Shown here: positions 554 through 13,318 of the stretch, piece by piece
How positions within the stretch are numbered: position 1 is the stretch's first letter
How the letters are laid out: every line of letters begins with the position of its first letter
Assembly (NCBI GenBank): GCA_020697375.1
Contig: JAJFBJ010000097.1
Span: 1 to 13,567, forward strand
Reading direction: 5' to 3'
Origin: Nitrospira sp.
GTDB lineage: Bacteria; Nitrospirota; Nitrospiria; Nitrospirales; Nitrospiraceae
DNA: 13,567 nt
The notes under the pieces: generated by a model
Told to the model about the DNA's origin: nothing
The model's database searches: none
The model's input: the letters and a program-made list of their open reading frames with translations, nothing else
Program-made: the position numbers and the translations under genes

Positions 554-889
554 ATGTCATTGCCCCTGTCGATCAGTCTATTCATCGCCGCCGGACTCTG
601 CGAGATCGGCGGCGGCTATCTGGTCTGGTTGTGGTTTCGTGAAGGGAAACCTATCACGTATGCCGCGGCGGGAGCGTTGTTGTTGATCCTCTACGGAATC
701 ATTCCAACCTTGCAGACTGCCCATTTCGGGCGGGTATACGCGGCCTATGGCGGCATGTTCATCATCCTCTCGTTGCTGTGGGGATGGGGAGCGGACGGGA
801 CCAGGCCGGACCGGTTCGATCTCATCGGAGCCGCCATCTGCCTGATCGGCATGGCCGTGATCATGTACGTCCCTCGCTCAACGATGTAA
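554..889 (+). CDS. ynfA: YnfA/UPF0060 family small membrane protein
   Basis: This 111-residue protein has four predicted membrane helices, the usual size for the family. Conserved YnfA features are visible: [13 protein letters not shown] in helix 1, GRVYAAYGG before helix 3, and [17 protein letters not shown] as helix 4. YnfA proteins are inner-membrane relatives of the small multidrug resistance transporters. E. coli family members have been linked to efflux of toxic organic cations, but the substrate here cannot be read from sequence. The start is secure: AGGAGG at 544-549 precedes ATG 554 by 4 nt. The gene lies 49 nt behind the preceding gene and probably shares its transcript. Confidence 0.93.
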
Positions 890-1593: not shown

Positions 1594-4500
1594 TCACCCT
1601 GCGTCACGGCCGTTCATTTTCACGTCGTGCGGCAGCGAAAAGCGCCGAGAGACAATGACAATTACAGGGTGGAACCGGCTGCTCGAAGCGCCTGTTGAAT
1701 CGTTTCGTGGAGCTGCTCGATGGCGGCATCCTTGGCCAGGAATGAGACGGCGCCTGCTTCCCGCATGGAATGAGACGGCGCCTGCTTCCCGCATGACCTG
1801 CTCAACCTGCCGATTGTTGTGCACGGAGAGCCCGATGACCAGGATGGCTGGTTGCTCGGCCTTCAATATGTGCGTCGCTTCAATACCGTCTATGCCTGGC
1901 ATATTCACATCCATAATCACGACATGCGGCGACAGGGCTTTAGCCAGGGTGATCGCTTGCGCGCCGTCCACCGCTTCTCCCACCACTTCAATATCGGGGT
2001 ATCCATCCAGCACTGTGCGGAGCCCCTGGCGAAGCATGGCATGGTCGTCCACCAGAAGCACTCTGGTTCTCGCCGAATGGTCGAGGGCGCGAGAAGGGAC
2101 CGTTGCCGGCCTATCCGCCGTCCTTGCGGTCTTGGGTCCGCTTCGTTCGACCGGATCGGCGCCCGCTGCCGTCTGGCTTTTTTCGAGATCCGTTCCCCCG
2201 GGATCATCTTCAGCCGGCGCATCTTCATAGGGAACGGCCAAAGTGACCTTCGTTCCGCCTCCCGGAGATGACTCGACCGTCATGTGCCCGCCCAAGGCAT
2301 CCATCCGTTCTCGGATACTGAACAGGCCGAACATCGGTGTGGTGAGGTTCGCCGCGGCGCCGGCCGGGTCGAACCCGGTCCCCTCATCCGCGACCCGGAC
2401 ATGTAGCACATCTCCCTCGGTCCACACTGAAACCGACGCATGCAACGTTCCGGCATGCTTCGAGACGTTGATCAACAGTTCGCGAGCGGATTGAAAGAGC
2501 AACACCGCCTGATCTTCCCGCAACTGCACCTGCTCCAGGTCGCAATGCACGACTACCGTCATTTCCTGTCGCCGCATCTGTTCGGCGAGCCATCGGATCG
2601 CCATCACCAAGCCGAACTCTCGGAGCACGGGAGGGCTCAATTGGGCCACCAACGATCTGGTGTAGGTGAGCGCCTCGTTCAACATGTCGTCCAGCTCCTG
2701 CACCAGCCCCAGGGCCGGGCCGAGATCGCCACGTTTGGCTTGACCCACCTTCATACGGCCGAACACCAATAATTGCGCCAGATAGTCGTGGAGTTCCGAC
2801 GCCAGTCGCTGTCGCTCGCGCTGCTCGGTCAAAGTCAGTTCAGAAGCCAAGGCTCGTAAACGCGTACGGGACTGCATCAACGCCTGGGTGCGCTCGGCCA
2901 CCCGTTGTTCGAGTTCGATCGTCCAGCGCCGGGTTTGCTCTTGAGCCTTCTTTCGCTCGGTAATATCGCGCAATAATCCGGTGTACGTCACATCACCGCC
3001 CCGTTGGTTCTTACTGATCGACAGTTCCACCGGGAAGCGTGATCCATCCTTCCGAACTCCTGTCATCTCTGCGCCGATTACTTTGAAGGCCAGGCCGCTG
3101 ATATCGAAATCGCTGGCCGGCGAGGTTTCGTGCTCGCTACTGTATGGGTAGGGCATCAGCATCATAATATGGCGGCCGAGCAAATCGTCGAGCCGGTAAT
3201 CGAACAGGCGTTCGACGGCCGGATTGGCGCTATGGATGATTCCCTGCTCATCGATGATGATGATTCCGTCTACGGCGCCCTCCACCATGGCCTTGAGTCT
3301 GGACTCGCGTTCGGCCAGCGCCGATGCTGCCCGATGCCGTTCCCAGGCGATGGCGATGAGATGACACAGCGTTTGGAAAAACCCGATCTCCGCTTCGGTA
3401 AAACGATCCCTCCTGGTTGTCCCGAATGACAGCGTGCCCAGCACTTGCCCGTCGCCGGTCTTCAAGGCATGGCAGGCATAGGCCCTGATGCCTATGGTTC
3501 GCATGAGGTCGCCCTTGGGATCCGAGGCAATCTGGTCGCTGTCTGCCATCATCGACGTCCCACAGGCGGCCACATGCCCGCAGAAACTTTGCCCCCAATG
3601 GAGCCGCTGCGCTGCTTGCGCTACATATTCCGGCACGCCGACACCGGTGAGGAGATGGAGGTCTTTGCTTTTCTCGTCCACCACATAATTGAGACAGAGA
3701 TTCACATCGAATTGAAACGAGACTTTTTCGTAAATCGTCTTTGTCCAGCTCGCGGGATCGGAGGGCACTTCCAGAATCATCCGGCTGATTTCGAGGAGTA
3801 GTTGTTGTTGCTCTTTCTGGCTGTTCAGTATGCCTTCTTGTCGCTTTCGGTCGGTAATGTCTTGAGCCGTGCCTAGGATCTGCACCGGTCGTTCTTCCCG
3901 ATCCCGCGCGAAAATGACGTTGCGGGAATGAAACCAACGCCACTCCCCGCTACGATGCCGAATCCGGCATTCAAATTCTATGACCTCTCCATCAGCCAAA
4001 GAAGGCAGGCCCTTCAGGCACTCCCGCACCTGTGGCAAGTCCTCCTCATGCACCAGCGCCTGCAACGCTTCTTGTCCAACCAGCTGCAGCCCTTCCGCGG
4101 CATAGCCGAGCGCGGCTTCCAATTTTGCATTGGCATAGATGTTTCTATTTTCAGACAGATCGTAGAGATAGACCGTGGAGGGCGCCGCATCCACCAACTT
4201 TTTGATGAACCGTTCGCGCTGGGTCAGTTCGCTGAGGAGGACCCGTTTTTCTTCCTCTCGATCGTACAGCCGCAGCAGGGCCTTGGCCGCACCCAACAAT
4301 TCCGTGGCTTCCAGTGGTTCAGTCAAGTACACGTCCGCGCCGCCTGCCAGTCCAAGGGCCTTGTCCTCCGGTTTCACGCTGGAGGCGGAGACTTGCAAGA
4401 CCATGGTTTGTTCCGTCGCCGCGTCCGTCTTGATGCGCCGGCAAATTTCGATGCCGTTGATATCCGGCAGCCCCACATCCAAGAGCACCAGTTGTGGACG

Positions 4501-4647
4501 ACCCTGCTGTATCAGCTCCAACGCGTCCCGGCCATTCGCGGCCTCCAACACGCTGTATCCCGCGCGCCCGAATATTCTGCTCTTGGCATAGCGCGCGCCT
4601 TCATCGTCATCGACGATCAGCACGGTATGTCGGAACGTATCTGTCAT
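1594..4647 (-). CDS. Hybrid sensor kinase REC-PAS-GAF-PAS-HisKA_3-HATPase-REC, last domain frameshifted
   Basis: ATG 4647 lies 7 nt after the preceding kinase stop. Domains by residue: REC 8-125 (acidic D13-D15, phosphoacceptor D57; the usual lysine of the KP motif is Glu110 in YLTEP), PAS 150-268, GAF 285-440, PAS 450-567, coiled coil 568-600, HisKA_3/NarX-type dimerisation with H620 in SELHDYLAQ, HATPase (N727, DEGTGFD at 754, GLFSIRER), charged linker 805-860, and a NarL-type REC from 861 (D867-D868, D913 in IMDVNMPG). After VSF-960 a 28-bp duplication shifts the frame and the ORF runs on to 1594 with an unrelated basic tail (1017 residues in all). Without it the protein would read FLAKDAAIEQLHETIQQ and stop at 1664-1662 (985 residues), restoring Lys963. 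No DNA-binding domain follows in either frame. It likely acts as a cytoplasmic kinase or phosphorelay node at the end of the rsb operon. Confidence 0.88.
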   Translation of the reverse strand: MTDTFRHTVLIVDDDEGARYAKSRIFGRAGYSVLEAANGRDALELIQQGRPQLVLLDVGLPDINGIEICRRIKTDAATEQTMVLQVSASSVKPEDKALGLAGGADVYLTEPLEATELLGAAKALLRLYDREEEKRVLLSELTQRERFIKKLVDAAPSTVYLYDLSENRNIYANAKLEAALGYAAEGLQLVGQEALQALVHEEDLPQVRECLKGLPSLADGEVIEFECRIRHRSGEWRWFHSRNVIFARDREERPVQILGTAQDITDRKRQEGILNSQKEQQQLLLEISRMILEVPSDPASWTKTIYEKVSFQFDVNLCLNYVVDEKSKDLHLLTGVGVPEYVAQAAQRLHWGQSFCGHVAACGTSMMADSDQIASDPKGDLMRTIGIRAYACHALKTGDGQVLGTLSFGTTRRDRFTEAEIGFFQTLCHLIAIAWERHRAASALAERESRLKAMVEGAVDGIIIIDEQGIIHSANPAVERLFDYRLDDLLGRHIMMLMPYPYSSEHETSPASDFDISGLAFKVIGAEMTGVRKDGSRFPVELSISKNQRGGDVTYTGLLRDITERKKAQEQTRRWTIELEQRVAERTQALMQSRTRLRALASELTLTEQRERQRLASELHDYLAQLLVFGRMKVGQAKRGDLGPALGLVQELDDMLNEALTYTRSLVAQLSPPVLREFGLVMAIRWLAEQMRRQEMTVVVHCDLEQVQLREDQAVLLFQSARELLINVSKHAGTLHASVSVWTEGDVLHVRVADEGTGFDPAGAAANLTTPMFGLFSIRERMDALGGHMTVESSPGGGTKVTLAVPYEDAPAEDDPGGTDLEKSQTAAGADPVERSGPKTARTADRPATVPSRALDHSARTRVLLVDDHAMLRQGLRTVLDGYPDIEVVGEAVDGAQAITLAKALSPHVVIMDVNMPGIDGIEATHILKAEQPAILVIGLSVHNNRQVEQVMREAGAVSFHAGSRRRLIPGQGCRHRAAPRNDSTGASSSRFHPVIVIVSRRFSLPHDVKMNGRDAG
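1739..1795. repeat. Exact 28-bp tandem duplication inside the terminal REC domain of the hybrid kinase
   Basis: Starting at 1739, the 28-bp unit (ggaatgagacggcgcctg... to 1766) is repeated at once at 1767-1794, with one more matching base. Twenty-eight is not a multiple of three, so the extra copy shifts the kinase frame after residue 960. Collapsing it restores the conserved REC lysine and a stop codon (complement of 1662-1664) about 70 nt earlier than the present one. Confidence 0.95.
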
Positions 4648-4654
4648 GGTTGTA

Positions 4655-6847
4655 TCACTCTTGTTGCACCCGGTCGGCAGCTTGACCGAACCGTTCGGGA
4701 ATCACCTCGGTGATGACGCGACGGACGCGTTCTTCGGAGAGATCGCTTTTCATGACAATTGCCCGCGCAGATCGCTCGAGTACCGCTCGGGCCTCTGCTG
4801 AGAGGGCCTGAGAGGTGACGATAACGACAGGGGTTCCGGCCACTTTTTCGTACGCCGCCAGGTCTTGAAGAAACTGCCACCCGGAGCGGCCGGGCATCGT
4901 GAGATCGAGAAAAATCAGATCCGGCTGCAGTTCCCGGCAGAGCCGGATTCCCGCCATGGCGTCTTCGGCTTCCGAGACGGTACAAGGAAGATCCAACAAG
5001 CACTTTTTAAGGATATAGCGAAAGGACTCGTCATCGTCAATGATCAAGAGGCGCGGGAACGCTTCATTCCCGGCCGAACGACCTACGATCCCTCGCCGCT
5101 CCACCAGACGGTCCAACTCCGAGACGAGCGCGGCACGTTCGATCGGCTTCACATGGTACGCATCTGCGCCCAACACAAGGCCCTTGCCGTGATCTTCCAC
5201 CGTCGTCACGACGATGATCGGGATATCCTTGGTCGCCTCGTCCGCTTTCATATGCGCAAGCCAGCGCCAGCTTTCTTCTCCGCCCAGCAGGATATCGAGA
5301 ATGATGGCAGCCGGTCGCAGCCCTTGCAAGAGGCGCCGAGCCTGATGAAGCCCCGCGGCGCATATCGGCTGATATGTGGTGCCCCGGAGATAGGTTTCAT
5401 AAATGAAGCGGGTCTCCGCTTGGTCTTCGATAATCAGAATAGGAAACCGCGCGGTATCCAGCGGAGCCACTTCGCCCCCTCCCGTATCAAGGAGCCTGTC
5501 TCTGGAAGAGTGGTGGACAGGAAATGTAAGTCGGAACGTAGAGCCGATTCCCACCTGGCTCTCGACCGTGACGTGACCGCCAAGCAGGCCTGCCAGCTTT
5601 TTGCACAGGGGAAGGCCAAGCCCCGTGCCTTTCACCCGGCGCTGGATGGGATGGTCCACCTGGCTGAACTCTTCAAAGATCAGAACCTGGTCTTCCGGTC
5701 TGATCCCGATGCCGGTATCGGCGACCGACAGGGTGATGTTCTCCTCAAGCGCATCGATCGATGCCGTGACCCGAATTTCGCCTTTCTCGGTAAATTTCAG
5801 GGCATTGGAAATAAAATTCCTGACGACTTGCGACACTTTTCCTTCGTCGGTATACAACAGCGGTAACCCGTCCGGGTCATCGAATACAAGATTCACCGAC
5901 GAGCCGGCCAGCAGGGGCTTCAACATGCCTCGGAGCGCGCTGAACATCGTTTTGATTTCGAACTCCACCGGACGCACATCCACTTTACCGGCTTCGATTT
6001 TGGCAAGGTCGAGCAGATCGTTGACGAGTTCGAGCAGAGTTTCAGCCGCCTTTCGAATGAAACGGGCTTGTTTGTCCTGCTCGATGGTCAGTTCACCGTC
6101 GGTGCGATCCAGCAGGAGCGCCGACAGCGCGAGGATCGAACTCAGCGGCGTACGGAACTCATGGCTCATGTTGGACAGAAACCGGCTTTTCATCTGGTCC
6201 GCGCGCCGGAGATGGTCGGCCTTTTCATCCAACTCGGCATAGAGCGCGACGACTCCACGATTGGTATCCTCCAATTCATGGTTCATGCGGACCAGCTCGT
6301 CCTGTCGAACACGCAGTTCATCCAGGATCCGCATCAGCTCATGGTTTTGCTGCCTCAATTCCTCTTGCGCGCTTTGCGCGGGGGTTGTGATCAGCTGGTC
6401 GACCAGCTGCTGTAATTCCTTTGCGCCCACCAGCGGCGCGCGCGTCGGTACCAGCTTTTTCAATCGCACCGTCGTGCCGAAGCTTTCTTGGCTCTGCACG
6501 TCGCACTGGTCCATCAGACGCTTGGCGCCGAGGATTCCCAGACCCATGCCGGTTGCCGATTGATACCGGCCCTCCAGAATACGCGGGAGATCTCGAATGC
6601 CGGGGCCCTTGTCCGTCACGCGGATCACCAGCACTTGAGGCGAGGTCTGGCCCTCCAGCAGGAACTCCACCAAGCCATGTTCGGCATATCGGAATGCATT
6701 GCGCGCGATTTCGGAGACGGCCGTCGCGATTCGGGTCTGGTCTTGAGAGTCGAATCCCAACAGCTGCGCGATGTGCCTCGCCCGCTGCCTTGCGGCCACC
6801 ACGTCATCCTCGTATTTCAATGCGACCGTCGCGATCGGATACGTCAT
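4655..6847 (-). CDS. RsbT-like ATPase domain fused to hybrid histidine kinase with two REC domains
   Basis: This 730-residue cytoplasmic protein has no membrane helix. Residues 1-132 are an RsbT-type GHKL domain (SEIARN with N50, DKGPGI with D79, GMGLGILGAKRL at 100-111) closely resembling the stand-alone RsbT encoded upstream. A coiled coil follows (145-218), then HisKA with H229 in SHEFRTP, HATPase (N348, D377 in ADTGIGI, GTGLGLPL at 407-414), REC1 468-585 (D518, K567) and REC2 598-715 (D604-D606, D648, K700). All key residues are intact. In Bacillus, RsbT binds the stressosome and then a phosphatase. A fused RsbT-like domain suggests that this kinase senses the stressosome state directly (inference). 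ATG 6847 has a weak ribosome site and overlaps the stop of a small ORF (ATGA), so coupling is likely. The next kinase starts 7 nt downstream. Confidence 0.93.
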   Translation of the reverse strand: MTYPIATVALKYEDDVVAARQRARHIAQLLGFDSQDQTRIATAVSEIARNAFRYAEHGLVEFLLEGQTSPQVLVIRVTDKGPGIRDLPRILEGRYQSATGMGLGILGAKRLMDQCDVQSQESFGTTVRLKKLVPTRAPLVGAKELQQLVDQLITTPAQSAQEELRQQNHELMRILDELRVRQDELVRMNHELEDTNRGVVALYAELDEKADHLRRADQMKSRFLSNMSHEFRTPLSSILALSALLLDRTDGELTIEQDKQARFIRKAAETLLELVNDLLDLAKIEAGKVDVRPVEFEIKTMFSALRGMLKPLLAGSSVNLVFDDPDGLPLLYTDEGKVSQVVRNFISNALKFTEKGEIRVTASIDALEENITLSVADTGIGIRPEDQVLIFEEFSQVDHPIQRRVKGTGLGLPLCKKLAGLLGGHVTVESQVGIGSTFRLTFPVHHSSRDRLLDTGGGEVAPLDTARFPILIIEDQAETRFIYETYLRGTTYQPICAAGLHQARRLLQGLRPAAIILDILLGGEESWRWLAHMKADEATKDIPIIVVTTVEDHGKGLVLGADAYHVKPIERAALVSELDRLVERRGIVGRSAGNEAFPRLLIIDDDESFRYILKKCLLDLPCTVSEAEDAMAGIRLCRELQPDLIFLDLTMPGRSGWQFLQDLAAYEKVAGTPVVIVTSQALSAEARAVLERSARAIVMKSDLSEERVRRVITEVIPERFGQAADRVQQE

Positions 6848-6951
6848 GTGTGGAGTCCCGCTTGGTTCATGATGGCTGTCGTCTCATCCACGTCCGGGGG
6901 GCACAGGCCGCAGGCCGAATGACCGGCGCTATGGTTATCGATCGCGGACAT
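6844..6951 (-). CDS. Possible 35-residue small ORF bridging phosphatase and kinase genes
   Basis: ATG 6951 lies 4 nt after an AGGA motif (gagaggaaccg). The ORF overlaps the last 17 nt of the phosphatase gene in another frame and ends with a TGA that shares ATGA with the start of the RsbT-kinase gene. It reads MSAIDNHSAGHSACG... and contains a CGLC pair. It fills the only gap longer than about 10 nt inside the operon, and the next gene has little Shine-Dalgarno sequence of its own. It may therefore be a coupling or leader peptide. No homology is known to me and it could be chance. Confidence 0.33.
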   Translation of the reverse strand: MSAIDNHSAGHSACGLCPPDVDETTAIMNQAGLHT

Positions 6952-7981
6952 CGGTTCCTCTCGGGCCTCCGAACACGAGGACCGTGGCGTCGTCGGTCCG
7001 GCGCCCATAATCCCGGTACAGAGTGGCGGCAATGAGACTCGCGTCGCGCATCATCAGCCCGACGTACGATGTGAGATCCCAGCGGGTGCTGATTCCATCC
7101 GAGCACAGGACGAGCGTCGCCGATTCGGACCAAGGATATTGAAACTCCTTCGCCTGTCGCATCTGATGGCCTAGGATTCCATTCTGGGACACCATGTGAC
7201 GAGCGACACCGTCTTGAAGGACTGTGGCCATGATATTGCCGATACCGGAAAAGTTAATGATCCCTCGATCATGTAAGATCTCCGCGATTCCGAGCGCGGC
7301 CCCTCTCGTTGATTTAAGCGTCTCATGGGCCAGCTCGATCTGCTCGACTAGCGGCGCATCGCGATGTTCCAAGAGACTCGCCATCGCCGCTGAGGAGGCC
7401 TCGGCCGCCAGCGGTCCATGGCCTAAACCGTCGGCCACGGCACAGAGGGTTCGCTTGCCGGACGATTCGAACAGCCACGCATCGCCCGAGACCGTTTCGC
7501 CAGGTATGGGCATGCGGACCACACCGGGGACAGTTCCCAGGAAGGTATCTCGGCGCGGAGAATGGTCTTTCCAGACCCGCGCGACCAAAACGGTTCCCTG
7601 TCCCGGCTTGGAATGTATGTCGAATGTCGAGGCAACCCTCGACAGCGCTCCGAGGCCCGTGCCGCTGCTGCCAGCCGTGGAATGGCCATCTTGAAGGGCA
7701 CGGTTCACATTGCCCATTCCAGGCCCCCTATCGATCGAGAGCATTTCAATCCCAGGAATCGGGCCATGCATCAATGCCCGTAACAATATTTGACCTTCCT
7801 TCGCATGTTTGACCAAATTGCTGCCCATCTCAGAGGCGATCAGCGCGCAGACTCCGGTTTGGGTTTCACCCAATCCCGCGAGTTCGGCCAACGCCGTAGC
7901 CCTTTGGCGGGCCTCCGACACCTGACTGGATTCCACGACGGAAATGATCCGTTGCTCACGTACCGCTTCGTTGATATCCAA
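6935..7981 (-). CDS. RsbT-like ATPase domain fused to SpoIIE/PP2C serine phosphatase (RsbX-like role)
   Basis: The N-terminal ~135 residues are a GHKL ATPase of the RsbT/RsbW type (IASEMGSNLVKHA with N55, DRGPGM, GTGLGALS). The rest is a SpoIIE-family PP2C domain with its metal-binding aspartates: SGD 165-167, VADGLGHG (D184), LCSDGIS (D295), RTDDATVLV (D330/D331). It likely dephosphorylates the STAS proteins RsbR/RsbS, like RsbX of Bacillus, or a downstream STAS protein, like RsbU. Position after rsbT fits either. A GTG at 7999 would add six residues and overlap rsbT by 10 nt but has no ribosome site. TTG 7981 follows GGAGGTAAGG, which overlaps the rsbT stop, so I prefer it (348 residues). 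ATP-binding SpoIIE phosphatases of this layout are a known type. The target is inferred. Confidence 0.9.
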   Translation of the reverse strand: MDINEAVREQRIISVVESSQVSEARQRATALAELAGLGETQTGVCALIASEMGSNLVKHAKEGQILLRALMHGPIPGIEMLSIDRGPGMGNVNRALQDGHSTAGSSGTGLGALSRVASTFDIHSKPGQGTVLVARVWKDHSPRRDTFLGTVPGVVRMPIPGETVSGDAWLFESSGKRTLCAVADGLGHGPLAAEASSAAMASLLEHRDAPLVEQIELAHETLKSTRGAALGIAEILHDRGIINFSGIGNIMATVLQDGVARHMVSQNGILGHQMRQAKEFQYPWSESATLVLCSDGISTRWDLTSYVGLMMRDASLIAATLYRDYGRRTDDATVLVFGGPRGTDVRDR

Positions 7982-7989
7982 TGGGAACC

Positions 7990-8394
7990 TTACCTCCACC
8001 GGGCAATCATCACGCTGGTTCCTTTGCCGGCTTCCGATTGGATATCGAATTCATTCACCAGTCGCTTCGATCCGCTCAACCCCAGACCCATCCCGCTCGC
8101 GGTCGTAAACCCGTCCTTCAACGCCAAGCTGAGATCGGCAATGCCCGGCCCCTTATCCACGAATGTCAGCCTCAGCCCGCGTCGGATACCCTCCTGTAAC
8201 GCTTCGAAGCGGACCTCTCCTCCCCCGCCATGTTGGAGCGTATTTCGGGCCAGTTCGCTGGACGCCGTCACGATCTTGGTTTGATCCACGAGAGAGAACC
8301 CCTGCATCAGCGCCCATTCCCTCGTTATTTGTCTGGTCCTCACGATGTCGTCGGAAGATCGAATCGCAAATGTCTCATCCCGCAACGTGGCCAT
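7990..8394 (-). CDS. rsbT: RsbT-type serine/threonine protein kinase
   Basis: From ATG 8394 the protein has 134 residues, essentially the length of Bacillus RsbT (133). The frame extends upstream to 8451 but those residues overlap rsbS deeply and look non-native, while GAGGT lies about 9 nt before 8394. GHKL motifs are intact: SSELARN (N box), DKGPGI (G1) and GMGLGLSGSKRL (G2). In the known system RsbT is held by the RsbR-RsbS complex, phosphorylates both on stress, is released, and activates a partner. Here candidate partners are the phosphatase and the RsbT-domain kinase that follow. The start overlaps the end of rsbS by 20 nt and the stop lies within the ribosome site of the next gene, so these genes are translationally coupled. 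Confidence 0.93.
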   Translation of the reverse strand: MATLRDETFAIRSSDDIVRTRQITREWALMQGFSLVDQTKIVTASSELARNTLQHGGGGEVRFEALQEGIRRGLRLTFVDKGPGIADLSLALKDGFTTASGMGLGLSGSKRLVNEFDIQSEAGKGTSVMIARWR

Positions 8395-8764
8395 TGCCCC
8401 TTGACCTCTGCCCGATGGACTCCTCGAGCATCTGCACTCCCTTGTCGACATTGAGAGCCGTGCGCACGCCGGGCAACGCCAACCCCAATTCCACCAGTGT
8501 AATGGCTACCGCCGGCCGCATGCCGACCAACACCGTCTCCGCGTCCAACACCTTTGCCATGCTGGCGATGTTTCCGATCATGCGGCCGATGAAGGAATCC
8601 ACGATTTCCAGCGACGAAATGTCGATGAGGACACCGTGCGCCCGGTCTGTGACGATACGTCCGGTCAAATCGTCCTGCAGGGTCATGGCGAGGCGGTCGT
8701 GCATGTCTACCTGTACGGTCACCAATAAAAACTTACCCATTTTAAGGATCGGAATCCGTTCCAT
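8375..8764 (-). CDS. rsbS: RsbS-type STAS domain stressosome protein
   Basis: This 129-residue single STAS domain begins with the family signature ERIPILKMGKFLLVTVQ. The segment DISSLEIVDSFIGRM aligns with Bacillus RsbS, so Ser57 (VDSF) corresponds to the phosphorylated Ser59. GMRPAVAITLVELGL near the end is also typical. RsbS forms the core of the stressosome with RsbR and is the main target of RsbT. The C-terminus has a short extra tail (about residues 118-129) rich in R, G and S that overlaps the rsbT start. The gene begins 3 nt after the rsbR stop without a strong ribosome site, which suggests coupling. Confidence 0.95.
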   Translation of the reverse strand: MERIPILKMGKFLLVTVQVDMHDRLAMTLQDDLTGRIVTDRAHGVLIDISSLEIVDSFIGRMIGNIASMAKVLDAETVLVGMRPAVAITLVELGLALPGVRTALNVDKGVQMLEESIGQRSRGNGHVAG

Positions 8765-8767
8765 CGA

Positions 8768-9631
8768 TCAGTCATTCGCCGTGGCGGCCGCGCGCTTTCC
8801 GATCACGGCTCCGGTGCGCTGAAGCGCGATCATGAACGCATCGGCGAGCGTGGCTTTAGTCATGACATCGCTCAAATTGACGCCGAGATGGACGATGGTC
8901 TGGGCTATTTGCGGCCGGATACCGCTGATGATGCAGTCGGCTCCCATCAGCCTTGCCGCCGCAACGGTTTTCAGGAGATGTTGCGCCACCAGGGTATCGA
9001 CCGTCGGCACCCCGGTGATATCGATGATGGCGATCATGGCGCCGGTTTCGACGATGCGTTCCAGAAGGTTTTCCATCACGATCTGGGTTCGCGCGCTGTC
9101 GAGCGTCCCGATCAACGGCAAGGCGAGAATGTCGTCATACAACTGTACGACCGGCGTGGACAATTCCAGCAACTCATGTTGCTGCCGTTGGATGACTTCT
9201 TCGCGGCTGTGCTGATGCAGATCGATGGTATGCAATCCGAGGTTGTCCAGAAGCAATGTCAAATTCCACAGCTCGCCGGCCTGTTCTTTGGCATCGGCAA
9301 ATCCTGCGCGGACCAGATTGAACAGTGGTTGTTTCAAGGAAAAGATGAAGGTCGCCGTTTCGGCCGGACTGAAGCCCTGCAGCGCCCTGCGGCGAACCGT
9401 CTGGGCCAGGAGGTCCTTCATCGGCTTCCAGGAAGGAGCATTGAGATCCGATCCGCTTGGCAGGGCTTGGTTGAACAGATTGAGAAAGTCCCGGGACTGT
9501 TCACGCAACTCGGTCTCATTCATCAGGTCTCGGCGAAGCGTTGGCGAAGAGAGTTGGTAGGCCACCCATTCTTTCAGGACCGCCTCTAGATGCTCGCGTA
9601 GATATTGTGCGAATGTGCGTTGACTCGTCAT
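8768..9631 (-). CDS. rsbR: RsbR-type stressosome sensor (RsbRD_N + STAS)
   Basis: ATG 9631 is preferred over the in-frame GTG 9652 because AAAGGAG (9647-9641) is the ribosome site 9 nt before it. That gives 287 residues. Residues ~8-130 are a helical RsbRD_N-type sensor domain (VLKEW, RALQGFSPAETATFIFSLKQPLF), not the globin-like sensor of Bacillus RsbRA. A linker helix leads to a STAS domain (~160-275) with LPLIGTLDSARTQ, IIDITGVPTVDT and GADCIISGIRPQIAQT. Thr213 (VDT) matches RsbRA Thr205. The position of Thr171 is Ser179 (LDS), with the same 34-residue spacing. RsbR forms the stressosome shell and passes the stress signal to RsbT. First gene of the operon. Confidence 0.93.
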   Translation of the reverse strand: MTSQRTFAQYLREHLEAVLKEWVAYQLSSPTLRRDLMNETELREQSRDFLNLFNQALPSGSDLNAPSWKPMKDLLAQTVRRRALQGFSPAETATFIFSLKQPLFNLVRAGFADAKEQAGELWNLTLLLDNLGLHTIDLHQHSREEVIQRQQHELLELSTPVVQLYDDILALPLIGTLDSARTQIVMENLLERIVETGAMIAIIDITGVPTVDTLVAQHLLKTVAAARLMGADCIISGIRPQIAQTIVHLGVNLSDVMTKATLADAFMIALQRTGAVIGKRAAATAND

Positions 9632-9827: not shown

Positions 9828-10262
9828 TTACGACCAGTATTCGGAGGCCTTCATATATCCCTGCAGTAAGTCGCGTCTCGCCACGATGCCGACCAGCTCA
9901 TTGTCCCGCACTACGGGCAGACGCGTCACGTACCGGTCTTGAAACAGGTTCGCAACCTCCTCCATGGTCATGCCTTCCCGGGCCGTGAGGGGATGGGGCG
10001 TCATGATTTCAGAAGCCAGGACCTTGCGCAAATCCCGCCCATCGATCATGGCTTGCAGGAGATCGTATTCCGTCACGAGGCCGACGAGCCGGTTGCCTTC
10101 TTCCACTACGGGCAACCCTCCGAAATTTTGTTTCGTCATCAGCCTGGCGATCGTGAGCGCATCCGTGCCGGCCGTGCAGGTGAACAGGGCATCCTGCATC
10201 AGCTGGCCGACGGTGAGAGTTTTCGGATCACAGGCTCGGGTGAGCGAGTCGATTTGACGCAT
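9828..10262 (-). CDS. Two-CBS-domain (Bateman module) protein
   Basis: This 144-residue protein consists almost only of two CBS motifs: ~18-73 (TVGQLMQDALFTC..., GGLPVVEEGNRLVGLVTEYDLL) and ~83-138 (ASEIMTPHPLTAREGMTMEEVANLF..., RLPVVRDNELVGIVARRDLL). Bateman modules usually bind adenine nucleotides and report energy state to a partner. No partner domain is attached. ATG 10262 follows GAAAGGA with 7 nt between, the same ribosome site used by the four-CBS gene across the divergent region. The gene lies 21 nt behind a secreted-protein gene and is probably its co-transcribed second cistron. The rsb operon begins 196 nt further on, in the same direction, and could receive read-through. Confidence 0.93.
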   Translation of the reverse strand: MRQIDSLTRACDPKTLTVGQLMQDALFTCTAGTDALTIARLMTKQNFGGLPVVEEGNRLVGLVTEYDLLQAMIDGRDLRKVLASEIMTPHPLTAREGMTMEEVANLFQDRYVTRLPVVRDNELVGIVARRDLLQGYMKASEYWS

Positions 10263-10811: not shown

Positions 10812-11138
10812 GACCCACGTCCTTTCATGGCATCCTGAAACGCTGTCACGCAATCATAATGCCCCGATATCAGGCATGTCTCTATCCTCTTCACCCGGCG
10901 CATTATTGATTGCCGGCCTATCTTATGATCGTTCCAGTTATCGGACGACTGACGCCAATTACCCCAAAGAGGCGACGGAGGCTGCTGCAAAACGCCGCAA
11001 CCGGCTCCATCGGGATGAACCGCAACCTAGCTCGGCTGATTCGTGATCATAGCGGATGGATAGTGAAGCAGCCCTTCGACCAAGCTCAGGCATATCCAAT
11101 GCAGTGCCCATTGCAGCGCAATGAATGAAAGGATAGGG
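10812..11138. other. Divergent intergenic region between the two CBS-protein transcription units
   Basis: These 327 bases separate the - strand pair (10811 leftwards) from the + strand four-CBS gene. They probably hold both promoters. On the - strand a sigma70-like pair fits (see 10853-10882). For the + strand I see no convincing pair. A TATGAT at about 10924 has no properly spaced -35. A 56-codon + frame from 10876 (MSLSSSPGALL...) lacks a ribosome site and is not called. No repeat or RNA gene was recognised. Confidence 0.6.
10853..10882 (-). promoter_or_regulatory. Candidate sigma70-like promoter for the secreted/CBS gene pair
   Basis: On the - strand GAGACA (10882-10877, four of six bases match TTGACA) is followed after 18 nt by TATGAT (10858-10853, five of six match TATAAT). 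The predicted transcript would start about 35 nt before ATG 10811. Plausible by position and sequence only. Confidence 0.35.
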
Positions 11139-11999
11139 ATGCCTATGGCGACGGGAGCAGGCTGCCAGGTCAGCGCCTATATGCACCGCGAACTGGAGGT
11201 CATCCCGCAGGATTCCGCGGTATCGGCCCTTGCCGCCAGAATGCGGGAGCGGCGCATCGGCTCGGTGCTGATTGAAACATTCGACCGCCCTCAGAATGAC
11301 TGCCGGATCGCCGGGATCGTCACGGAGACCGACCTGGTCGGCAAGGTGCTGGCACAATGTCTCGTGCCCTCAGCCACCATGGCGACCGACATCATGAGCC
11401 GTCCCCTCATCACCATCGAGCCGAACCGCCCGATGCTCGATGCCAGCCATCTGATGGAAGCCAAGAGGGTGCGGCATCTGGCGGTCGCCGAGGGCCACGA
11501 TGTCCTCGGAATCATTTCGGTGCGCGATCTGGTCAGACACTTCGTCGAGGCGGAGGGCGGACCGGTGCAGGCCCTCACGGATGTCTACCGCCCCTTGAGC
11601 GTGCTCATGAACCGCACCATCGAAACCATCACCAGCGATGCAACCGCCCGGTCCGCCGCGCAACGCATGGCCGCGAAACACATCGGGGCGCTGTTCGTGA
11701 TGGAAGCCGACGAACTGGTGGGCATCGTGACCGAAGCAGACCTGGTGCGGAAGCTGCTTGCCGACCAGCGCGATCCGGAGACGGTGAGAATCAACGCCCT
11801 GATGAACTCGCCGTTGATCGACATCGACATCAATCGGACCATCCGCGATGCCAGCGACCTCATGGCGGCCAAACGAGTCCGCCACCTGGCCGTCACCGAA
11901 CATGAGAAGGTGCTCGGCGTGCTGTCGATCCGGGATCTGGTCAAGATGGTGTCGATCCGCGACCGTCCTGAATTTTTGAAACGCAGCTCACCGGCATAG
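11139..11999 (+). CDS. Four-CBS-motif protein (tandem Bateman modules)
   Basis: ATG 11139 lies 5 nt after AAAGGA. ATG 11145 (6 nt after ATAGGG) and ATG 11121 are in frame but less or not better supported. The 286-residue protein holds four CBS motifs, approximately 12-72, 84-136, 154-206 and 220-272. Modules 1-2 and 3-4 are an internal duplication: DASHLMEAKRVRHLAV..VLGIISVRDLV recurs as DASDLMAAKRVRHLAV..VLGVLSIRDLV. Two modules in one chain can form a CBS disk without a partner, normally binding AMP, ATP or related ligands. No enzymatic or membrane domain is attached. The gene diverges from the two-CBS gene pair, which suggests co-regulation. A GC-rich hairpin directly after the stop lacks a T-run. 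Confidence 0.93.
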   Translation: MPMATGAGCQVSAYMHRELEVIPQDSAVSALAARMRERRIGSVLIETFDRPQNDCRIAGIVTETDLVGKVLAQCLVPSATMATDIMSRPLITIEPNRPMLDASHLMEAKRVRHLAVAEGHDVLGIISVRDLVRHFVEAEGGPVQALTDVYRPLSVLMNRTIETITSDATARSAAQRMAAKHIGALFVMEADELVGIVTEADLVRKLLADQRDPETVRINALMNSPLIDIDINRTIRDASDLMAAKRVRHLAVTEHEKVLGVLSIRDLVKMVSIRDRPEFLKRSSPA

Positions 12000-12173: not shown

Positions 12174-12230
12174 ATGAAGGCGCGGCAATGTCAGGTATTC
12201 AACCGCTATTGTGAATTGATGCCACAGTGA
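12174..12230 (+). CDS. Possible 18-codon leader ORF before the lipoprotein gene
   Basis: ATG 12174 follows GAGG with a 7-nt gap and reads MKARQCQVFNRYCELMPQ, then TGA at 12228-12230. That stop overlaps the GTG start of the lipoprotein gene (GTGA), which has no clear ribosome site of its own. This is a classical layout for translational coupling. Too short to confirm from one sequence. Confidence 0.33.
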   Translation: MKARQCQVFNRYCELMPQ

Positions 12231-13318
12231 AGGTCCAGATTTCATCAAGCAACAGTGCTGCGACGCCAGGGAACAGGCTTAGGCGATACCACAGGTTTCC
12301 AACCTTTATCGCCTATTGTCTACTCGTCGCCTGGCTGCCGGGCTGCGTCAGCGGGCTCAACATCAAGGACGTAAGCGATGACGACGAGGATGAGAGCATC
12401 GCCCAGAGTTATTGCGAACCAGCCACCGTTCCTACCGCTGAAATTGTCACCGTGTCGGCCGGTACCGAAGCCAACCCGATCCAAACGACGTCACGGTATT
12501 CAGTGGCGGCTTCCATCGCCCCTTTGCCATTTTCACCCCGGGCGCAGCAGGTTGCGGCCATTATCGGCGTGGATGGCCTGCTTGCCGAGTTCAACGCGCT
12601 TGAAAAAGAGATGGCGCATGGATTGGAAGGCGCATCGCTGCGCTTCCTGACGGTCCGCCAAGAACTGTCCGACCGGCTGCTGTTAGCCCTGTTCGAAGCG
12701 AACAGCATTGCCGCGGAGCTCGAATGCGAGAAGGCGCGAACCGAGGACATCGCTTCCCGGCTGGAGGATATCAGGAATGACGTTCAGCAAGGTCGAACGA
12801 TTTTGGCCATTCTGGCCGACTCTATTTCAGGTGTGTTCGCCGGAACCTTTCTGCTGGTCGGGGCAGAAATTATTTCCGGGATAATCGATCTTACAGGAAG
12901 CGCTGCGGCACTGGGATTCGGCGTGGCGGCCCTGGGCGGTGATCAGTCATACGAATTAAGCCATGGACGTAACCTCATGACTGAAATTTGGCATGGAGGC
13001 CAATCCAGCAACCAGTTTCCCGCTCCGGTCTGGCGTTATCTGAATTGGCCGGTGCGCGAAACCAGCAAGCGGAGCCGGCGCGAGAATATCGTCGGAAGCT
13101 GGCGCGCGCGTCTGGGAAAACCCGGCACAAACGAAGAGCGCCGCCGCGCAGACCTTTTTTTCGGCGAAGGAGGAGTGTACCGGATCAGCGAGTTGCGGCA
13201 TCGGGGTGAAATGCTGGGATTGCTCAAAACGCACGTCAACTTGATGACCCAGGACTTGAACCTGCTCTTCCGTGAAACGCTGCACCGAAAGCCCCTTGTG
13301 AAAAGTGACCCGACATAG
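12227..13318 (+). CDS. Predicted lipoprotein of unknown function
   Basis: GTG 12227 is the only usable start before the signal sequence, since a stop lies in frame at 12212. Residues 1-40 form a long basic n-region, a hydrophobic core and a lipobox-like LPGC, so Cys40 would be lipidated. An acidic run follows (DVSDDDEDES). Residues ~115-190 are strongly helical and probably coiled coil (LLAEFNALEKEM, RQELSDRLLLALFEANSIAAELE). Residues ~198-238 are hydrophobic and glycine/alanine-rich (FAGTFLLVGAEIISGIID...AALGFGVAALGG), like a membrane-inserting hairpin. The C-terminal ~110 residues are basic and soluble, with W and R clusters. I do not recognise the family. The helix plus glycine-rich segment recalls envelope-spanning or pore-associated proteins, but no function should be assigned. 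It may be coupled to the 18-codon ORF. Confidence 0.8.
   Translation: MKVQISSSNSAATPGNRLRRYHRFPTFIAYCLLVAWLPGCVSGLNIKDVSDDDEDESIAQSYCEPATVPTAEIVTVSAGTEANPIQTTSRYSVAASIAPLPFSPRAQQVAAIIGVDGLLAEFNALEKEMAHGLEGASLRFLTVRQELSDRLLLALFEANSIAAELECEKARTEDIASRLEDIRNDVQQGRTILAILADSISGVFAGTFLLVGAEIISGIIDLTGSAAALGFGVAALGGDQSYELSHGRNLMTEIWHGGQSSNQFPAPVWRYLNWPVRETSKRSRRENIVGSWRARLGKPGTNEERRRADLFFGEGGVYRISELRHRGEMLGLLKTHVNLMTQDLNLLFRETLHRKPLVKSDPT

What the first reader, a model, noticed from the sequence alone, without database searches (positions are those of the whole stretch)
4655..9631. Stressosome operon wired into a histidine-kinase phosphorelay
Seen: rsbR, rsbS and rsbT are followed, with overlaps or very short gaps, by an RsbT-like/SpoIIE phosphatase and a kinase whose N-terminus is itself an RsbT-like domain with intact N, G1 and G2 boxes. 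Known: in Bacillus the stressosome releases RsbT to activate RsbU and then sigma-B. Inferred: here the RsbT-like domain of the kinase docks on the RsbR/RsbS shell, or competes with RsbT, so stress would switch phosphotransfer through H229, D518 and D648. Stressosome modules next to two-component genes are known in other bacteria, so the novelty lies mainly in the fused RsbT-like input domain.
Basis: partly seen in the sequence, partly recalled or inferred. Interest (0 to 1): 0.72.

Follow-up and report, generated by a model that had tools for sequence, protein, structure and literature searches.

The report
Stressosome operon with RsbT-fused histidine kinase
This is a bacterial stress-sensing gene set in which a relative of the stressosome's own switch protein is welded to the front of a histidine kinase; the same arrangement recurs in distant bacteria, including Deinococcus radiodurans, so how a stressosome talks to a phosphorelay can be tested in a laboratory strain.

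Summary
The kinase's N-domain is 40% identical to the operon's RsbT. It is not local. Of 48 fused kinases collected (window included), 45 have rsbR, S, T and X on the same strand within 6 kb; two more are cut by contig ends, one is a true exception. Fused domains form one clade, HisKA_2 kinases included. The same slot elsewhere holds an RsbU_N-headed kinase (1) or a bare coiled-coil kinase (9). In 8 of 48 fused domains the ATP site has decayed (0 of 71 free RsbT), while most conserved alpha1-alpha2 residues survive. This favours docking over a second serine kinase; binding is untested. Stressosomes beside two-component genes are published, and one paper credits the D. radiodurans linkage to a 2001 study. 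Ten searches surfaced no paper on the fusion. Verdict: new variant of a known kind.

The parts
8768..9631 (-). RsbR: RsbRD_N sensor domain + STAS; T213 and T245 at the usual phosphorylation positions
   Evidence: Pfam PF14361 E 6e-27, PF01740 E 3e-13; positions
8375..8764 (-). RsbS: single STAS; S57 in VDSF
   Evidence: PF01740 E 5e-8; relatives in the same order
7990..8394 (-). RsbT, free switch kinase, ATP motifs complete; overlaps rsbS and the RsbX-like gene
6935..7999 (-). RsbX-like phosphatase with an extra N-terminal GHKL domain (HATPase_c_2 + SpoIIE/PP2C)
   Evidence: N-domains form a separate clade, 100/96
4655..6847 (-). Hybrid histidine kinase with fused RsbT-like domain
6452..6847 (-). 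RsbT-like domain (residues 1-132); model pLDDT 92, nearest solved folds SpoIIAB and RsbW in complexes with their partners
6194..6451 (-). Linker and signalling helix (residues 133-218) with QNxEL and ELEDTNRGVVALYAELDEKA; predicted helix 160-246 runs on into HisKA
5987..6193 (-). HisKA, H229
5516..5848 (-). HATPase_c of the histidine kinase
5102..5437 (-). Receiver 1, D518 (bounds approximate)
4745..5047 (-). Receiver 2, D648
1594..4647 (-). Sixth gene: REC-PAS-GAF-PAS-HisKA_3-HATPase_c-REC kinase, possible receiver of the signal; C-terminal receiver frame-shifted by a tandem duplication
   Evidence: 36 of 48 fused kinases are followed by a REC-first kinase in my profile count, 12 are not

Best explanation
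A stressosome signalling operon whose output is a phosphorelay instead of a sigma-B cascade. RsbR and RsbS form the STAS shell, RsbT phosphorylates it on stress, the RsbX-like protein resets it (all by homology). The kinase carries its own RsbT paralogue as a docking domain that binds the same STAS shell, or a partner in it, as RsbT does; docking or release alters the helix (about 160-246) leading into the H229 dimerisation domain and so switches autophosphorylation. Phosphate then goes to the kinase's receivers and/or the N-terminal receiver of the second kinase. Shown: genes, domains, conserved order, single-clade fused domain, alternative kinase heads in the same slot, ATP-site loss with most conserved alpha1-alpha2 residues kept. 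Inferred: binding to the shell, sign of the effect, relay order.
For: Conserved order in 45 of 48 fused kinases, each with an intact free RsbT. One fused clade at 98/92, on HisKA and HisKA_2 kinases alike, so the module moves between kinase cores yet stays in rsbRSTX operons. The same slot holds an RsbU_N-headed kinase in L175 and a bare coiled-coil kinase in nine loci; RsbU_N is RsbT's published docking domain, and RsbT activates RsbU by ordering a coiled-coil linker (PMC12143880, passages). At least 3 of 6 ATP-site residues are changed in 8 of 48 fused domains and 0 of 71 free RsbT (Fisher 5e-4), while D15, R20, Q37, T42, E46, R49, R110 and L111 stay in all eight. Nearest solved folds of the fused domain: SpoIIAB and RsbW, solved with SpoIIAA, sigma F or RsbV.
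Against: No binding or phosphorylation data. Nine operons manage without the domain. L105 is a fused kinase with no RsbS, T or X nearby. 40 of 48 copies keep at least five of six ATP-site residues, so nucleotide binding probably matters there. E46, recalled as the catalytic base of such kinases, is kept even in decayed copies. Two conserved alpha1-alpha2 residues, A23 and V44, are kept in only 3 of the 8 decayed copies. The eight are few lineages: L183-L186 look like one, and L099 and L159 pair in the tree. L195 is a weak match (40 bits, residues 6-74 of its ORF) and Pfam finds no HATPase_c_2 in it. Most loci were picked by similarity to the fused kinase.
Confidence: 0.55

Rival explanations
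1. The fused domain is a second, active serine/threonine kinase: it phosphorylates RsbS/RsbR itself (or is activated by them), and the histidine kinase is only a passenger output.
For: In 39 of 48 fused domains all six ATP-site residues are intact, and E46 is kept in all 48; the window copy is complete.
Against: ATP site decayed in 8 of 48 fused domains but in none of 71 free RsbT; all 45 complete loci also have an intact free RsbT.
Confidence: 0.15
2. The fused domain never touches the shell: it is a built-in copy of the RsbT-on-linker activator, working in cis on its own helix, and is regulated by the RsbX-like protein or by free RsbT.
For: RsbT orders a target's coiled-coil linker in B. subtilis (PMC12143880, passages); the same slot can hold RsbU_N; the helix is continuous into HisKA in the model.
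Against: The loop around position 93, aligned by way of Listeria RsbT with the RsbT D92 that contacts RsbU, is rewritten: D or E in 68 of 71 free RsbT, G in 43 of 48 fused. This is weak: the RsbX N-domain also keeps D there (38 of 38), and an acid often stands one position earlier in fused copies.
Confidence: 0.2
3. Free RsbT (or the RsbX-like protein) acts on the kinase's coiled coil, as in the bare-kinase operons, and the fused domain is a modulator or dimerisation aid.
For: Nine operons have a kinase with only a short N-terminal coiled coil, so some coupling without the domain must exist if those kinases are outputs.
Against: The fused domain is one clade across the five phyla in the trees, with R20, Q37, E46 and R49 invariant in all 48 copies.
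Confidence: 0.1

Closest known systems
Vibrio-type rsbRSTX stressosome with D1-D2 two-component output (V. vulnificus; PMC9237108, PMC10014275, passages read)
   Same: rsbR-S-T-X followed directly by a two-component kinase; V. vulnificus mutants in the upstream and downstream modules are reported to have similar phenotypes
   Different: There RsbX is a single PP2C domain; the authors found RsbU_N in some downstream proteins but not in most, and no positive RsbT-D1 interaction. A Vibrio relative here has PAS-HisKA-HATPase_c-REC-REC-Hpt and no RsbT-like head (L161).
RsbU_N-headed histidine kinases in stressosome operons (PMC12143880, passages; L175 here)
   Same: Same operon slot, kinase reached through a coiled-coil linker
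   Different: They are thought to recruit free RsbT through RsbU_N; here an RsbT-like domain itself is the head
D. radiodurans MP1 operon around DR_B0028/DR_B0029 (L158)
   Same: Same six-gene order; the 577-aa kinase has HATPase_c_2 + HisKA + HATPase_c + REC
   Different: One receiver instead of two. PMC6501615 (passage) states the co-regulation with an anti-sigma system, citing Makarova 2001 (not held); no fused domain is mentioned in that passage
B. subtilis / Listeria RsbRST-RsbU-V-W-SigB
   Same: RsbR, RsbS, RsbT; Listeria proteins match the same profiles
   Different: No RsbU_N, and nothing matching a sigma factor, among the window ORFs scanned with Pfam

Membership tests
Stressosome (RST module) | RsbR with N-terminal sensor + STAS, RsbS single STAS, RsbT kinase, adjacent | tested here: met
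Stressosome (RST module) | Phosphorylatable Thr in RsbR STAS and Ser in RsbS at the usual places | tested here: met
   T213, T245, S57 in the contexts VPTVDT, RPQIAQT, VDSF; similar contexts are seen in Listeria; that these are the sites is recalled
Stressosome (RST module) | Assembly of an RsbR:RsbS shell that binds RsbT | not testable with these tools
   needs purified proteins
rsbRSTX module | RsbX-type PP2C directly after rsbT | tested here: met
   SpoIIE domain, E 2e-8; has an extra GHKL domain, unlike the single-domain RsbX of PMC9237108
Sigma-B partner-switching cascade | RsbU (RsbU_N + PP2C), RsbV, RsbW, sigma factor | tested here: inconclusive
   not seen among the window ORFs scanned; no whole genome is held
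RsbT family (fused domain) | Closer to RsbT than to other GHKL domains of the operon | tested here: met
   40% against 27% identity; grouped with free T apart from X N-domains at 100/100; in the wider tree a clade of its own whose sister is unresolved
RsbT family (fused domain) | Complete N, G1, G2 boxes | tested here: met
   met in the window copy; 9 of the 48 copies examined have a change, 8 of them three or more
Hybrid histidine kinase | HisKA with His, HATPase_c, receiver with Asp | tested here: met

The most novel reading that the evidence does not exclude
The kinase head is a pseudo-RsbT plug: a former serine kinase turned into a stressosome-docking domain that several lineages keep without a working ATP site. 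It replaces the RsbU_N:RsbT pair by covalent fusion, so that the shell holds or releases histidine kinases directly, in at least seven phyla.
Probability: 0.35. Interest if true: 0.7.

Novelty: new variant of a known kind. Interest (0 to 1): 0.55.

Why it matters
What a Gram-negative stressosome acts on is open: PMC9237108 reports no positive RsbT-D1 interaction and PMC4976288 calls RsbT's downstream partner unknown (passages). A kinase that carries its own RsbT-like domain gives a concrete, testable link between a partner-switching machine and a phosphorelay. It occurs in named strains (D. radiodurans R1, Phaeobacter inhibens DSM 17395), and the decayed copies offer natural variants that may separate docking from catalysis.

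Tried and rejected
Rejected: that the fusion is a one-off or an assembly join; it recurs in 48 ORFs. Rejected: that the N-domain is a duplicated histidine-kinase CA domain; its nearest solved folds are SpoIIAB and RsbW. Weakened: a first idea that the fused domain simply lost the RsbT D92 contact; an acid stands one position earlier in 130 of 158 copies of a set weighted towards close relatives and in at least 22 of 48, so only a rewritten loop is claimed. D92 was located by counting in the Listeria ORF (D94) plus a recalled two-residue offset to B. subtilis. Led nowhere: PDB searches for a solved RsbT (searches give SpoIIAB first); no NCBIfam RsbT model matches; the full-length fold search finds ordinary kinases, ShkA first.

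Rows dropped: L101 (same contig as L010); L117 (same locus as L021) among the free RsbT, and L021; L154 (kinase cut by contig end) from the 48; ORFs with fewer than 150 residues after the domain. L104 is in the tree but fell out of that (match too short); the loci are in neither tree. The seven-residue alpha1-alpha2 set was chosen from positions invariant in alignment A2, which already held the decayed L099, so its 4-of-56 figure is partly built in; the list (positions conserved in the 40 undecayed copies) is free of that.
Full report
OBSERVATION. Five genes on the minus strand match the finding: rsbR 9631-8768, rsbS 8764-8375, rsbT 8394-7990, an RsbX-like GHKL+SpoIIE gene 7999-6935, and the kinase 6847-4655. 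A sixth gene, 4647-1594, begins 7 nt later and encodes REC-PAS-GAF-PAS-HisKA_3-HATPase_c-REC. H229, D518 and D648 are correct. The kinase N-domain is 40% identical to the operon's RsbT (E 2e-30) and 27% to the RsbX N-domain. Its predicted fold (pLDDT 92) is nearest to SpoIIAB and RsbW, in entries solved with their anti-anti-sigma or sigma partners, ahead of histidine-kinase domains.

HOW COMMON. A protein search scored the 7997 candidates sharing most words, all with E <= 0.001; only 120 are listed, and all 120 carry HATPase_c_2, HATPase_c, HisKA and Response_reg. Two Nitrospira entries are named 'Putative SigmaB asociated two-component system sensor protein', so annotators had seen the link. 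Sampled genomes with the first 300 residues at E <= 1e-50: 5 of 198 (phylum of a Nitrospira genome), 13 of 299 (phylum of a gammaproteobacterial genome), 1 of 199 (phylum of Aquisphaera), 4 of 199 (phylum of an Acidobacteriaceae genome). These counts include the centre genome of each sample, and 6 of the 13 and 1 of the 4 are kinases without the RsbT part. With the domain alone: 7 of 190 at E <= 1e-15 in the class of a Bradyrhizobium genome, 24 of 201 and 65 of 184 at E <= 1e-22 in the phyla of a Thermoflexales and a Pyxidicoccus genome (Chloroflexota and Myxococcota); these counts include free RsbT, and in the Chloroflexota sample every listed match lies in a short frame (at most 190 aa).

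NEIGHBOURHOODS. 45 have RsbR, RsbS, RsbT and RsbX on the same strand within 6 kb. L002 and L020 lack some because their contigs begin 532 and 1676 bases upstream. L105 is a true exception: only an RsbR-like gene on the other strand, in a genome that also has a complete locus (L104). Of the 68 loci, 19 have any rsb gene; the other 49 match mainly through the kinase core. From the Pyxidicoccus phylum I fetched 18 of the 65 matching genomes, chosen mainly by frame length; all 11 with an open frame of 600 or more are fused kinases in rsbRSTX operons. From the Thermoflexales phylum I fetched 2 of 24: one has no kinase in my profile, one is L195.

PHYLA. Nitrospirota, Planctomycetota, Acidobacteriota and Pseudomonadota (labels), Deinococcota, Myxococcota, Chloroflexota (two proteins named Caldilineaceae and Chloroflexi; weak L195).

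DENOMINATOR. In the phylum of G006, 25 of 299 genomes match the free-RsbT alignment at E <= 1e-25. Their loci (and L014): fused kinase in 8 (the centre G006 among them), bare kinase of the same family in 6, other or undetermined in 11. So the fused form is one of several outputs.

WHAT ELSE SITS IN THE SLOT. Of 59 GHKL-type RsbX genes, the next kinase is fused in 47 (L154, cut by a contig end, included), lacks an RsbT-like domain in 10, and was not found in 2. Nine of the ten have only a short stretch before the kinase, with the motif E-[LI]-[ED]-[ES]-T-N-[QRH]-G-V-[LV]-A-L-Y (eight, L157); the three given to Pfam (L108, L113, L116) show HisKA and HATPase_c alone. The tenth, L175, begins with RsbU_N (E 3e-9). 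Fused domains also occur on HisKA_2 kinases (L153, L162). My sample is weighted to the fused form, so these are not natural frequencies.

DESCENT. In two trees the fused domains form one group: 100/97 (20 rows) and 98/92 (20 rows, with 18 free RsbT of other stressosome types). Neither tree holds the Myxococcota or Chloroflexota copies. In one search they group with free RsbT apart from RsbX N-domains. In the wider tree the deep branches are not resolved and the root is a midpoint, so descent from the operon's own RsbT is not shown.

ATP SITE. Six residues (N50, D79, G81, G83, G102, G104) are complete in 39 of 48 fused domains; one has a single change (L003) and eight have three or more (L099, L104, L159, L183-L186, L195). 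Of 71 free RsbT one has a single change and none three (Fisher 5e-4). Among positions conserved in the 40 undecayed copies, the eight keep D15, R20, Q37, T42, E46, R49, R110 and L111 in all, R39, S45 and D113 in seven, A27 and A43 in six, but A23 and V44 in only three; N50, Y54, A55, D79, I84 and G100 are kept in none. Over the twelve such positions from 15 to 49 that is 80 of 96 cells kept, against 12 of 48 for the six ATP residues. For the seven-residue set that I had picked earlier the changes are 4 of 56 against 36 of 48, or 4 of 35 against 24 of 30 when reduced to five lineages; that set was picked from an alignment that already held L099. Cells are not independent, L099 and L159 pair in the tree, and L195 is a weak match. 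R20 of SpoIIAB is recalled, not looked up, as a contact to its partners.

MECHANISM. PMC12143880 (passages) reports that RsbT activates RsbU by ordering a coiled-coil linker and notes RsbU_N-headed histidine kinases in stressosome operons. Here the RsbT-like head is joined by a predicted continuous helix, residues 160-246, to the dimerisation domain (pTM 0.42, so relative domain placement is not reliable). The economical reading is that the head replaces the RsbU_N:RsbT pair and reads the STAS shell by docking. The sign of the effect and the relay order are open: of 48 fused kinases 9, 27 and 12 have 0, 1 and 2 receivers by my profile, and 36 are followed by a receiver-first kinase, 12 not (among the 12 are the window, whose HisKA_3 gene the profile misses but Pfam shows, and L114, which has only 1651 bases left).

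LITERATURE. Stressosome modules beside two-component or c-di-GMP genes are published (PMC9237108 passages; PMC10014275 passages; PMC4976288 passages). Pane-Farre 2005 and 2017 are cited there and were not seen; PMC7522486 (passages) added nothing on the fusion. For D. radiodurans, PMC6501615 (passage) says that DR_B0028 and DR_B0029 are thought to be co-regulated with an anti-sigma regulation operon, citing Makarova 2001 (not held), and that DR_B0028 was higher after vacuum exposure; PMC7597052 (passage) found DR_B0029 more abundant after orbit exposure; PMC7143949 (passage) calls DR_B0026 RsbT; PMC8363230 (passage) lists both kinases. That DR_B0028 is DR_RS15590 is inferred from gene order, not from a cross-reference. 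Ten searches surfaced no paper describing an RsbT-like domain fused to a histidine kinase; of their listings I opened passages of nine papers, and figures, such as Fig. 3 of PMC9237108, are not held, so a drawing of it could exist.

VERDICT. Real, conserved, and a new variant of a known kind. The operon context is known biology; the fused head, its single clade, its exchange with RsbU_N or a bare coil, and its repeated loss of the ATP site are what is worth a bench test.

Noticed in passing
window 1739-1795 (minus-strand gene 4647-1594): A perfect 28-bp tandem duplication (two copies) lies in the C-terminal receiver of the second kinase and shifts its frame; the relative in L098 continues in frame to a normal receiver end. 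Whether it is a real mutation or an assembly error cannot be told.
   Followed up: partly
window 6935-7999: The RsbX-like phosphatase also carries an N-terminal GHKL domain with all six ATP-site residues, as in 38 of 38 RsbX N-domains aligned; PMC9237108 describes RsbX as single-domain. Why a phosphatase should keep such a domain is unexplained.
   Followed up: partly
L163 5723-6628; L166 7252-8105: Two free RsbT-like genes in tandem after rsbS, an unfused arrangement.
   Followed up: no
L187-L193: Seven loci from the phylum of Pyxidicoccus with GHKL and PP2C genes apart and, in most, the order changed; five of the seven show no kinase in my profile.
   Followed up: no
window 9828-10262 (-) and 11121-11999 (+): Two CBS-domain proteins (two and four CBS stretches) lie on the operon's upstream side.
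   Followed up: no
window 554-889 (+): YnfA/UPF0060 family membrane protein.
   Followed up: no
window 12227-13318 (+): 363-aa ORF with a lipoprotein-like start (LPGC) and no Pfam or NCBIfam match.
   Followed up: no
L105 8058-9518: A second fused kinase in genome G500 outside any rsbSTX operon, with a lone RsbR-like gene on the opposite strand: possibly a second input feeding the same shell.
   Followed up: no
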